From a virus, in IMG/VR virus record IMGVR_UViG_3300003323_000567, positions 1-64,000 of that record: a DNA stretch of 64,000 nt, one strand, 5' to 3'. Made by a program: the position numbers and the translations under genes. The notes under the pieces are model-generated. The model did no database searches. It saw only the letters and a list, made by a program, of their open reading frames with translations, and was not told the DNA's origin. Positions 51,961-60,168 of the stretch are shown here, piece by piece; the stretch's first letter is position 1, and every line of letters begins with the position of its first letter.

Positions 51961-52018
51961 TTGGGGGAGGAAGAATCGAACTTCCGACAAGAATACTCTA
52001 CCACTGAGCTATCCCCCA
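51961..52018 (-). tRNA. tRNA-like element lacking an anticodon arm
   Basis: It has a perfect 7-bp acceptor stem (TGGGGGA with TCCCCCA), a D-arm (GCTC, loop AGTGGTA, GAGT) and a normal T-arm (GGAAG, TTCGATT, CTTCC). Between the D- and T-arms there are only 9 nt instead of about 23, so no anticodon stem can form. Total length is 58 nt. It lies between the small basic gene and the polymerase. It could be a tRNA mimic that marks mRNA for RNase P/Z cleavage, or a body that receives its anticodon arm from elsewhere; a decayed gene is the plain alternative. Confidence 0.65.
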
Positions 52019-52270: not shown

Positions 52271-52311
52271 GTTTGTAACTTTACAACATTAATTTACTAG
52301 TAGAGCTGCTA

Positions 52312-52412
52312 ACTATTTACTTACCTAATGCTTCTATTAAGCACCATACGGATTTGCACCGGGAAATATAAGGGTGTCACTAGCCCTTGAAGGTTTACCT
52401 ACCATAAATAGT
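52312..52412 (-). ncRNA. Stem-closed element resembling a decayed permuted tRNA
   Basis: An 8-bp stem (ACTATTTA with TAAATAGT) closes about 100 nt. Inside are a hairpin AAGGG/CCCTT like a long variable arm, a T-arm-like GGTGCAAATCC, and a 7-bp pairing GGTGCTT with AAGCATT across a 5-nt spacer, as if an acceptor stem had its 3' strand before its 5' strand. No convincing D-arm is present. Interpretation tentative. Confidence 0.35.
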
Positions 52413-52450
52413 ATATCGCACACAGAATATTGTCTCTGTGAAACATTTAG

Positions 52451-52521
52451 TGGAGCATAGGGGATTCGAACCCCTGATAACCATCTGAGGAGGGCCGGCA
52501 ACCAACTCCTACATATGCCCC
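52451..52521 (-). tRNA. tRNA, anticodon uncertain
   Basis: The 71-nt element has an acceptor stem GGGGCAT/ATGCTCC with discriminator A and a strong T-arm (AGGGG, TTCGAAT, CCCCT). The D-arm can be drawn as GTAG-GAGTTGG-TTGC. The anticodon arm folds poorly: the best stem, GGCC/GGTT, leaves an enlarged loop with several possible anticodons. A competing stem AGGAG/CTCCT would remove it. It lies between small genes in the tRNA-rich part of the window. Confidence 0.6.
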
Positions 52522-55525: not shown

Positions 55526-55541
55526 ATTAAATAAATTTATG

Positions 55542-55636
55542 TAGCGAGGGAAGGACTCGAACCTCCACGAGCTGTACCCAGAATTTAGCTCTCCACCGAG
55601 TTAGGATAGATGCTTTACCAATTTGCATACCTCGCT
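55542..55636 (-). tRNA. Long tRNA with an inserted hairpin, anticodon uncertain
   Basis: It has a 7-bp acceptor AGCGAGG/CCTCGCT, D-arm TGC/GCA with a GG-containing loop, and T-arm GGAGG-TTCGAGT-CCTTC. The anticodon stem may be CTATC/GGTGG. A 26-nt segment with hairpin GAGCT/AGCTC lies before the T-arm: either a class II variable arm or a small insertion. The predicted loop (CTAACTC) gives no standard class II anticodon, so the identity is unresolved. Confidence 0.6.
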
Positions 55637-55650
55637 GTGTGATAGATAAG

Positions 55651-55685
55651 AAAAAAAGAGAGGGGGAATCTATCCTATCCCCCTC
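55651..55685 (-). terminator. Intrinsic terminator downstream of the tRNA-Trp transcript
   Basis: An 8-bp stem GAGGGGGA/TCCCCCTC is followed by seven T's on the minus strand. It ends the transcript that contains the permuted tRNA-Trp and its neighbouring hairpin. Confidence 0.8.
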
Positions 55686-55717: not shown

Positions 55718-55754
55718 TGCTCTTTGTGTTTTCAAGTAGCCTCAAGCTAACATT

Positions 55755-56229
55755 ATTCCATTGTTCTGTCAACTGAACTACCCCGCCTTAAATTGCCAGG
55801 GACGGGAGTGGAAACTCAGTTCCCTGGACTTTCTTTCATCGAATGCAAATTATGCAGCCTTCTTTTCGCTTGATACTTTAGAAGACTGACCAGTCAATTC
55901 CCAATACTTATGAGCAGTAATCTTGCTCTTCACGAAAAGGGAGATAGGACTTCCTTTTCTTTCATTCTTCCTCTTGTTCCTGCCGTACTTCTTGTTTCCT
56001 TTACCTCCAGATTTATTTGCCATATGATAGTTTTATTTGATAATGACCCAGTATAGAGGATACCAGGTCTTAAACATGATACGTAAACAAAGTTTATTTT
56101 TTGGTCACTTCAAACCCATGATTTTCAAGGACTTCTTTACAAAGCTGAACGTAAAGAGGGTTTGAAGTACCAAAATTATTCTTCAAACGAGGCGGGGACA
56201 GGATTCAAACCTGCGACTTATGGATTTGG
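55755..56229 (-). tRNA. Circularly permuted tRNA-Trp(CCA)
   Basis: On the minus strand the 3' half comes first (56229-56190: CCAAA, then TCCAT, variable loop AAGTC, T-arm GCAGG-TTTGAAT-CCTGT, acceptor CCCCGCC, T). The 5' half follows about 400 nt later (55787-55755: acceptor GGCGGGG, TA, D-arm GTTC/GAAC, A, then ATGGAAT). Joining the 5' half to the 3' half gives a fully canonical 73-nt tRNA with all four stems perfect apart from one G-T pair and loop AT-CCA-AA. Sequences outside the halves can pair: 10 bp with two wobbles, CTCAGGTTAA (56260-56269) with TTAGCTTGAG (55741-55750). A 57-residue gene lies between the halves. Confidence 0.85.
55850..56023 (-). CDS. Small basic protein encoded between the two halves of tRNA-Trp
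   Basis: This 57-residue frame begins MANKSGGKGNKKYGRNKRKN and is strongly basic, with a short hydrophobic middle (PISLFVKSKI) and a Lys-rich end. It is the only coding frame in the intervening region. If the permuted tRNA is processed by RNase P and RNase Z, this mRNA would be released in the same event. Function unknown. Confidence 0.5.
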   Translation of the reverse strand: MANKSGGKGNKKYGRNKRKNERKGSPISLFVKSKITAHKYWELTGQSSKVSSEKKAA

Positions 56230-56269
56230 TTAACTACCTGACACGAGCGAATTTGAACTTTAACCTGAG

Positions 56270-56347
56270 TCTTTTGACACGAATCTAAGTCTAACTTGTC
56301 TGGGGACTAAATAAACCTAAATCTAAGTCTAAGTCTCGGTCAAATAT
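56270..56347. repeat. Short direct repeats of a CTAAGT-type unit
   Basis: Between about 56282 and 56336, copies of AATCTAAGTCTAA and CTAAATCTAAGTCTAAGTCT occur, built from a six-base unit. They lie just upstream (minus strand) of the tRNA-Trp 3' half. Their role is not evident; they may hold promoter elements. Confidence 0.5.
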
Positions 56348-59366: not shown

Positions 59367-59505
59367 ACATACCCTCACTACTGTCAATCAAACAGGAGAG
59401 CTCTCCTAACAATGAATTTGCCTCAGTCGAAGCTTTGAGGAACCCATATGTCAAAAAGCTTTGGCGCAAGGGGATAGAAATCCCAAGCCTGTAGTGAGGA
59501 TATGT
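59367..59505 (-). ncRNA. Structured leader or small RNA closed by a 15-bp stem
   Basis: The ends, ACATATCCTCACTAC and GTAGTGAGGGTATGT on the minus strand, pair over 15 bp with one wobble. Inside are hairpins GGGAT/ATCCC, CCTCA/TGAGG and the palindrome AGGAGAGCTCTCCT. It fills the gap before the 123-residue gene. Not matched to a known riboswitch or ribozyme. Confidence 0.5.
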
Positions 59506-59949: not shown

Positions 59950-60006
59950 AGATCCCAGTTTTGATTCTAAAGAGTAAGAATTGTTTGTATTTGCTGTATG
60001 GGATCT
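59950..60006 (-). ncRNA. Array unit 8: mini stem-closed hairpin RNA
   Basis: Closing stem AGATCCCA/TGGGATCT (8 bp), then TACAGCAAATA, then an inner hairpin ATTCT/AGAAT with an 8-nt loop, then CAAAAC before the stem closes. It is 57 nt long. It has the same outline as units 1, 4 and 7, with no D- or T-arm. The loop contains UCU but does not fit a normal anticodon loop. Confidence 0.55.
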
Positions 60007-60010
60007 TATC

Positions 60011-60068
60011 AGGTCACGACTTTTCCATTACAAGTGGATTGCTTTTAGCTTTTTGCTGTGTGTGACCT
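60011..60068 (-). ncRNA. Array unit 7: mini tRNA-like RNA with Thr(UGU) anticodon hairpin
   Basis: Closing stem AGGTCAC/GTGACCT (7 bp), CACAGCAAAAA leader, AGCAA then the hairpin TCCA-CTTGTAA-TGGA. The 7-nt loop is a normal threonine anticodon loop with U33 and A37. No D- or T-arm is present; total 58 nt. The flank AGCAA|TCC equals the exon border in units 3 and 5. Confidence 0.6.
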
Positions 60069-60072
60069 TATC

Positions 60073-60164
60073 AAGTGCCAATGGAGAATCGAACTCCTTT
60101 AGGTTCCTTCCCACCAGGGCCAGGTCTTTTTTCAGAAGAATTTAATGTTTGCTGTGTGGCACTT
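60073..60164 (-). tRNA. Array unit 6: tRNA-like, Phe(GAA)-type loop, without D-arm
   Basis: Here the closing stem (AAGTGCCA/TGGCACTT) also serves as an acceptor stem, followed inside by the CACAGCAAACA box where a D-arm would lie. Hairpin TCTT-CTGAAAA-AAGA fits a phenylalanine anticodon loop. An insert of about 25 nt is followed by a standard T-arm (GGAG-TTCGATT-CTCC). It is 92 nt long, in normal order. No D-arm can be drawn. Confidence 0.55.
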
Positions 60165-60168
60165 TATC

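What the first reader, a model, noticed from the sequence alone, without database searches (positions are those of the whole stretch)
55755..56229. Circularly permuted tRNA-Trp with a protein gene between its halves
The 3' half (56229-56190) lies upstream of the 5' half (55787-55755) on the minus strand. Joined, they give a canonical 73-nt tRNA with perfect stems: GGCGGGG/CCCCGCC, GTTC/GAAC, ATGGA/TCCAT, GCAGG/CCTGT (one G-T). The loop reads AT-CCA-AA. Such a match over four stems is very unlikely by chance. Permuted tRNAs are known from some algae and archaea; I know of none described in phages. The intervening region of about 400 nt contains a 57-residue basic protein gene.
Basis: partly seen in the sequence, partly recalled or inferred. 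Interest (0 to 1): 0.95.

Follow-up and report, generated by a model that had tools for sequence, protein, structure and literature searches.

The report
Phage Y-RNA-like tRNA mimic enclosing a gene
The 'circularly permuted tRNA' in this phage is real and conserved, but it looks like a Y RNA (a tRNA mimic that partners the RNA-binding ring protein Ro60, which this phage appears to encode too), unusual because a small protein gene sits inside one of its loops, rather than a tRNA that must be spliced to read tryptophan codons.

Summary
On the minus strand a perfect tRNA 3' half (56224-56190) precedes its 5' half (55787-55757), with 402 nt and a 57-codon gene between them. The same order occurs in two related phage contigs. 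All 35 modelled pairs form in all three, 7 with changes on both sides; slid controls give none, and Markov shuffles give no such match. The interpretation as a spliced tRNA-Trp is not supported. The anticodon would read CCA, CUA or UUA in the three phages, an intact tRNA-Trp lies elsewhere in the genome, there is no BHB motif, and no RtcB was found. The order (basal stem, T-arm, acceptor 3' strand, acceptor 5' strand, D-arm, basal stem) is that of bacterial Y RNAs (YrlA). The flanks pair into a basal stem. A covariance model of the element recovers a phage YrlA and compact permuted modules mostly near Ro60-like genes, but no ordinary tRNA with E under 1. The phage encodes a protein with the Ro60 fold 5 kb upstream, followed by a tandem array of Y-like hairpins. 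Most likely this is a Y-RNA-type tRNA mimic whose acceptor loop houses an mRNA. That part is unusual; binding and processing are inferred.

The parts
56257..56344 (-). Leader hairpin with GACTTAG repeats and apical GTCCCCAGAC, conserved in 3 phages
   Evidence: Alignment of three phages; the leader forms a hairpin in unconstrained minimum-energy folds of all three
56232..56244 (-). 5' strand of the basal stem (GTGT + CAGGTAGTT)
   Evidence: 13 pairs with 55726-55741, all kept in 3 phages; 1 pair changed on both sides, 4 on one side
56190..56224 (-). tRNA-like 3' half: anticodon-stem strand, variable loop, T-arm, acceptor 3' strand, U73
55850..56023 (-). 57-aa basic ORF inside the acceptor loop
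   Evidence: Conserved at 71-75% aa identity to the window protein; synonymous changes predominate: 23/7, 14/9, 22/7 synonymous/non-synonymous codon differences. No PHROG, Pfam or NCBIfam match
55796..55827 (-). Hairpin just before the 5' half (CCAGGGA..TCCCTGG, loop TTTCCA)
   Evidence: Stem letters change in a compensated way in L003 and L004 (alignment; folds)
55757..55787 (-). tRNA-like 5' half: acceptor 5' strand, U8A9, D-arm, anticodon-stem strand
   Evidence: acceptor stem has 4 of 7 pairs changed on both sides
55726..55741 (-). 3' strand of the basal stem (GGCTACTTG, AAA, ACAC)
55663..55683 (-). Terminator-like hairpin with T run after the trailer
   Evidence: similar hairpin in L003 and L004
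61243..63039 (-). Ro60-like (TROVE fold + vWA) protein gene, 598 aa
   Evidence: phrog_850 RNA-binding protein; top 10 structure matches all Ro60/TROVE, Z 14.9 to 11.2, including D. radiodurans Rsr and Thermus phage phiLo Ro60
59951..60894 (-). Tandem array of Y-RNA-like hairpin units, each stem + ACAGCAAA box, joined by TGATAAG
60460..60683 (-). Array unit with a compact permuted tRNA-like module (T-arm, closed acceptor stem, D-arm)
   Evidence: Read from the sequence and its fold; T-stem imperfect, so missed by the strict scanner
60170..60394 (-). Second array unit with a permuted acceptor/D-arm arrangement (TTCTCCAG..CTGGAGA)
   Evidence: Read from the sequence and its fold; its T-arm is irregular

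Best explanation
The element is a phage Y RNA of the YrlA type: a tRNA-mimicking RNA that starts and ends in a basal stem where a tRNA has its anticodon arm. Shown: the flanks pair into a 9+4 bp basal stem; the T-arm, acceptor stem, D-arm and anticodon-like stem form a tRNA-like body in permuted order; the acceptor stem is closed by a 255-402 nt loop that carries a conserved 56-57-codon gene. Inferred: the basal stem is bound by the phage's own Ro60-like ring protein (gene 5 kb upstream on the same strand), and the tRNA-like body recruits host factors that recognise tRNA (PNPase in the Rsr/YrlA machine; tRNA-modifying enzymes), steering RNA decay or quality control during infection. The gene in the loop makes the transcript both mRNA and Y RNA. 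Also inferred: RNase P and the 3'-end nucleases may cut at the acceptor ends, freeing the mRNA and leaving a two-piece tRNA mimic. No ligation to a decoding tRNA is needed.
For: Order identical to the Rfam YrlA consensus RF02553 (stem, T-arm, acceptor 3', acceptor 5', D-arm, stem). 35 of 35 pairs kept in 3 phages, 7 changed on both sides, none in any slid control; RNAalifold finds the basal, T and acceptor stems by itself. Covariance model R1 of the element finds the Moostard YrlA (36.3 bits, E 1.5e-5) and permuted modules in L029, L031, L033, L040 and L041. Over 1.25 Mb of eight phage records its only other matches with E at most 1 are such modules; no ordinary tRNA is among them. Permuted modules lie within about 3 kb of the Ro-like gene in G003, G004, G006, G008 and G010, and 5-7 kb away in G005. 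The predicted structure of the phage protein is Ro60-like, Z 14.9 to 11.2 for ten Ro/TROVE entries against 9.3 for the next fold. YrlA is described as a basal stem from both ends plus a tRNA-like domain that meets Rsr and PNPase (PMC8394870).
Against: The direct YrlA model search gives no match here: the known model allows only a short acceptor loop. The ACAGCAAA box of the Ro-adjacent arrays is absent from this element. It lies about 5 kb from the Ro-like gene, not next to it. Known YrlA are 90-150 nt and hold no ORF. Only 3 sequences of this exact type were found, and G002 (34 kb) shows no Ro-like gene, perhaps because it is a fragment. Pfam TROVE does not match the protein. No RNA data.
Confidence: 0.7

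Rival explanations
1. A true circularly permuted tRNA (Trp or other): the transcript folds, the ends in the anticodon loop are cut and ligated, and RNase P and tRNase Z release a decoding tRNA.
For: All cloverleaf stems perfect and covarying; U8-A14, G15-C48, G18-U55, A19-U56 and U54-A58 partners present; no encoded CCA but host enzymes could add it.
Against: Would-be anticodon is CCA, CUA or UUA in three close phages; intact tRNA-Trp in the same genome; no BHB motif (7/15 internal loop then 9 bp); no tRNA splicing endonuclease is known in bacteria; no RtcB found (the T4 Rnl1 search had a silent control); flanks conserved as a stem rather than as trimmable ends.
Confidence: 0.08
2. tRNA punctuation: the permuted fold serves mainly to place RNase P and 3'-end nuclease cuts on either side of the 57-codon gene, so that its mRNA is excised and its level controlled.
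For: The acceptor stem encloses the ORF with only a short 5' spacer in L003; 7 perfect pairs whose letters change together, as a processing enzyme would require.
Against: Does not explain the conserved basal stem and leader hairpin or the kinship with Ro-adjacent compact modules that enclose no gene. Not exclusive of the best explanation.
Confidence: 0.12
3. An autoregulatory mRNA structure: the basic 57-aa protein, or a tRNA-binding protein, binds the tRNA-like fold and controls translation of the ORF.
For: Lys/Arg-rich protein always between the halves; extra conserved hairpin before the 5' half.
Against: No homologue with known function; the same fold occurs without any ORF next to Ro-like genes in other phages.
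Confidence: 0.07
4. A permuted two-piece tmRNA or a permuted group I intron in a tRNA.
For: Both put a 3' part before a 5' part with a spacer between the acceptor strands or exons.
Against: No match to any tmRNA or group I model at E up to 10 at this place; no G3-U70; a full 4-bp D-stem; conserved flanks too short for an intron core.
Confidence: 0.03

Closest known systems
YrlA Y RNAs (Rfam RF02553), e.g. the one beside the Ro-like gene of Mycobacterium phage Moostard
   Same: Same permuted order of arms, basal stem made by both ends, tRNA-like elbow; a covariance model of the element recovers the Moostard copy
   Different: Acceptor stem closed by 255-402 nt with a protein gene instead of a short loop; extra leader hairpin; about 5 kb from the Ro-like gene; below threshold of the Rfam model
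Circularly permuted tRNA genes of red/green algae, nucleomorphs and Thermofilum pendens
   Same: 3' half before 5' half, intervening sequence between the acceptor ends
   Different: Those have BHB junctions, a conserved anticodon and mostly short intervening sequences (examples of 7-74 bp shown from Table 1 of PMC3978253); here no BHB, a variable 'anticodon', 255-402 nt with an ORF
Permuted two-piece tmRNA
   Same: Permuted tRNA-like RNA linked to a coding region
   Different: The tmRNA tag frame lies in the anticodon-side insert; here the ORF lies in the acceptor loop; no G3-U70, no tmRNA match
Bacterial Rsr / phage Ro60 (D. radiodurans Rsr 2nvo; Thermus phage phiLo Ro60 9l5y)
   Same: Fold of the phage protein at 61243-63039
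   Different: About 11-12% sequence identity; no Pfam TROVE match; followed by a tandem hairpin array

Membership tests
YrlA Y RNA (RF02553) | tRNA-like body in the order stem, T-arm, acceptor 3', acceptor 5', D-arm, stem | tested here: met
YrlA Y RNA (RF02553) | Basal stem formed by the 5' and 3' ends | tested here: met
   13 pairs kept in 3 phages, 1 changed on both sides, 4 on one side; found independently
YrlA Y RNA (RF02553) | Score over the family's gathering threshold | tested here: not met
   No match at this locus; the Moostard copy is itself under threshold at 37.9 of 69 bits
YrlA Y RNA (RF02553) | Length 90-150 nt with a short acceptor loop | tested here: not met
   255-402 nt between the halves
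YrlA Y RNA (RF02553) | Encoded near a Ro60 orthologue | tested here: met
   Ro60-like gene 5 kb upstream, same strand, in G000 and G003; cannot be judged in the 34-kb G002 fragment
YrlA Y RNA (RF02553) | Binds Ro60 and is modified by DusA/TruB | not testable with these tools
   needs biochemistry
Circularly permuted tRNA gene | 3' half upstream of 5' half with complete cloverleaf stems | tested here: met
Circularly permuted tRNA gene | BHB motif at the junction | tested here: not met
   7/15-nt internal loop followed by a 9-bp stem
Circularly permuted tRNA gene | Defined, conserved anticodon | tested here: not met
   CCA / CUA / UUA under the same join
Circularly permuted tRNA gene | Joined mature tRNA in cells | not testable with these tools
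   no RNA data
tmRNA (one-piece or permuted) | Match to a tmRNA covariance model and G3-U70 | tested here: not met
   No match at E up to 10 at this locus; pair 3-70 is C-G
Ro60/TROVE protein (61243-63039) | Ro60 fold (TROVE ring plus vWA) | tested here: met
   Z 14.9, 419 residues aligned, rmsd 4.6; ten Ro entries on top; model mean pLDDT 70
Ro60/TROVE protein (61243-63039) | Match to Pfam TROVE PF05731 | tested here: not met
   the remote match is DUF7788/DUF2828 and phrog_850

The most novel reading that the evidence does not exclude
A bifunctional RNA: a Y-RNA tRNA mimic folded around a protein-coding message, where tRNA-processing enzymes cut at the permuted acceptor ends to release the mRNA and leave a two-piece Ro60-bound tRNA mimic, so translation of a phage protein and a Ro60 RNA machine are coupled in one transcript.
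Probability: 0.3. Interest if true: 0.78.

Novelty: new variant of a known kind. Interest (0 to 1): 0.6.

Why it matters
It points to Ro60/Y-RNA systems in a lineage of uncultivated large phages, with a Y-RNA form that encloses a gene and, beside the Ro60-like gene, tandem arrays of Y-like hairpins. It shows how a permuted tRNA read-out can arise without splicing. It also gives a compact, testable system for the open question of what phages use Ro60 and tRNA-mimic RNAs for.

Tried and rejected
Group I intron / permuted intron-exon: no Rfam match at E up to 10, flanks too short. tmRNA: no match at this locus. Direct YrlA search of G000, G002 and G003: only sub-threshold matches, those inspected falling in the ordinary tRNA clusters. 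Similar DNA in annotated phages: none; the 57-aa protein there: none; its relatives in viral contigs: only L003 and L004; a DNA pattern from the 5' half and trailer found the same two contigs. RNA ligases: RtcB absent in 11 records; T4 Rnl1 absent, but the control rang nowhere, so that is inconclusive; Rnl2 and Pnkp not tested. UUAAC/GUUAG as the inner basal helix was considered, but L003 breaks it; the 9-bp CAGGUAGYY/GGCUAYYUG register holds in all three. Sequence search of the Ro-like protein against the PDB gave nothing useful; only the fold comparison did. The matches of model R1 at 56244-56094 and 55829-55726 in the window are forced part-alignments of the element itself, because the model lacks the 402-nt insert.

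Full report
Observation. The minus strand reads, in order, a leader, a tRNA 3' half (56224-56190), 402 nt holding a 57-codon ORF (56023-55850), and a tRNA 5' half (55787-55757). Acceptor GGCGGGG/CCCCGCC, D-stem GTTC/GAAC, anticodon-like stem ATGGA/TCCAT and T-stem GCAGG/CCTGT all pair. A scanner that asks for all four stems in permuted order finds this element only once in the window and never in 30 Markov shuffles. A looser version finds no other in the window and none in 20 shuffles.

Conservation. Two related virus contigs (L003, from a 34-kb record; L004, from a 125-kb record) have the same order with 255 and 312 nt between the halves. On the joined 118-column alignment all 35 pairs form in all three sequences and 7 change on both sides: four in the acceptor stem, two in the T-stem, one at the foot of the basal stem. 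Sliding the partners by 1-3 columns gives 36-47% pairing and no double change. The D-loop/T-loop contact appears as A19-U56 instead of G19-C56; the ordinary tRNA-Arg(UCU) of this genome (L024 5258-5330) shows the same pair by eye. The ORF is under coding constraint: synonymous over non-synonymous codon differences are 23/7, 14/9 and 22/7.

What the halves are attached to. The sequence upstream of the 3' half pairs with the sequence downstream of the 5' half: CAGGUAGYY with GGCUAYYUG, then GUGU/ACAC (AUGU/ACAU in L004). RNAalifold finds this stem together with the T and acceptor stems without being told; it does not by itself find the D and anticodon-like stems, which never vary. Unconstrained folds of the full 560-716 nt also bring the acceptor strands and the basal stem together in all three phages. 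The RNA therefore begins and ends in a basal stem where a tRNA would have its anticodon loop.

Why not a spliced tRNA. The genome has a normal tRNA-Trp(CCA) in a cluster of 23 tRNAs. There is no bulge-helix-bulge; known permuted tRNA genes have one, and the examples seen have intervening sequences of 7-74 bp (PMC3978253). RtcB was not found. The T4 ligase search is inconclusive because its control was silent.

Why a Y RNA. The Rfam YrlA consensus has the same order: stem, T-arm, acceptor 3', loop, acceptor 5', D-arm, stem. A covariance model made only from this element (the ORF left out) finds the YrlA next to the Ro-like gene of Mycobacterium phage Moostard (E 1.5e-5) and compact permuted modules in L029, L031, L033, L040 and L041. 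Over 1.25 Mb of eight Ro-carrying phage records it finds nothing else with E at most 1, although these hold many ordinary tRNAs. An independent motif scan puts permuted modules within about 3 kb of the Ro-like gene in five of those records and about 7 kb away in a sixth. The window's own protein at 61243-63039 matches phrog_850 'RNA-binding protein'. Its predicted structure (mean pLDDT 70) aligns best with ten Ro60/TROVE entries, among them D. radiodurans Rsr and Ro60 of Thermus phage phiLo, with Z 14.9 to 11.2 against 9.3 for the next fold.

Wider setting. Directly downstream of the Ro-like gene lies an ORF-free stretch (60894-59951) of tandem units: a 7-9 bp stem, an ACAGCAAA-type box just inside it, a variable middle, the closing strand, then TGATAAG and the next unit. 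The same design follows or flanks the Ro-like gene in Leptolyngbya phage Lbo-JY46 and in several IMG/VR records. In most units the 7 nt before the box pair perfectly with a strand followed by (C)TGATAA. Some perfect 7-nt partner exists for 43% of random positions, so it is the fixed position and the following TGATAA, not pairing alone, that carry weight. Two window units hold permuted tRNA-like modules whose T-arms are irregular. The finding's element lacks the ACAGCAAA box, so it is a separate type.

Mechanism proposed. Shown: the folded architecture, its conservation, the coding constraint and a Ro60-like gene in the same genome. Inferred: binding of the basal stem by the phage Ro60-like protein, recruitment of tRNA-recognising host factors by the tRNA-like body as in the Rsr/YrlA/PNPase machine (PMC8394870), and possible cutting at the acceptor ends that would free the mRNA. 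The weak points are the distance from the Ro-like gene, the long loop, the missing box, only three sequences of this type, and the absence of any RNA data. Known YrlA RNAs are 90-150 nt (PMC8394870), so the embedded gene is the unusual part; the literature search covered only open-licence papers.

Noticed in passing
59951-60894 (-): Tandem array of about 8 Y-RNA-like hairpin units (stem, ACAGCAAA box, stem, TGATAAG) right after the Ro60-like gene; similar arrays in L013, L028, L029, L033, L040, L041 and L032. Possibly more novel than the finding itself.
   Followed up: partly
51961-52018 (-); L004 11529-11586: tRNA-like gene without an anticodon arm (9-nt linker ATTCTTGTC identical in both phages; first acceptor pair switched T-A to A-T), so an apparently selected armless tRNA mimic.
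   Followed up: partly
55541-55636 (-); L003 6382-6475; L004 6342-6436: tRNA-like gene with a long variable arm whose loop AAATTCTGGGTA is conserved while the anticodon is not (ARAGORN: Val, Leu, Gln in the three phages).
   Followed up: partly
52448-52521 (-): tRNA-like RNA with a sub-threshold tmRNA match (31 bits) and irregular D and anticodon arms.
   Followed up: no
L024 5258-5330: Ordinary tRNA-Arg(UCU) of the same genome also appears to carry A19-U56 instead of the usual G19-C56 elbow pair.
   Followed up: no
55796-55827 (-) and about 59450-59500 (-): Two hairpins with a similar (A)TTTCYA loop, one just before the 5' half, the other downstream of the array; perhaps a shared protein-binding hairpin.
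   Followed up: no
52300-52430 (-): Structured-looking ORF-free stretch (GGGCTAGTGACACCC.. GGTGCAAATCC) between two tRNA-like genes; no Rfam match.
   Followed up: no
L026 3521-3629 and 5239-5345: tRNA-like genes of the related phage G003 with about 60 nt instead of about 22 nt between D-arm and T-arm.
   Followed up: no
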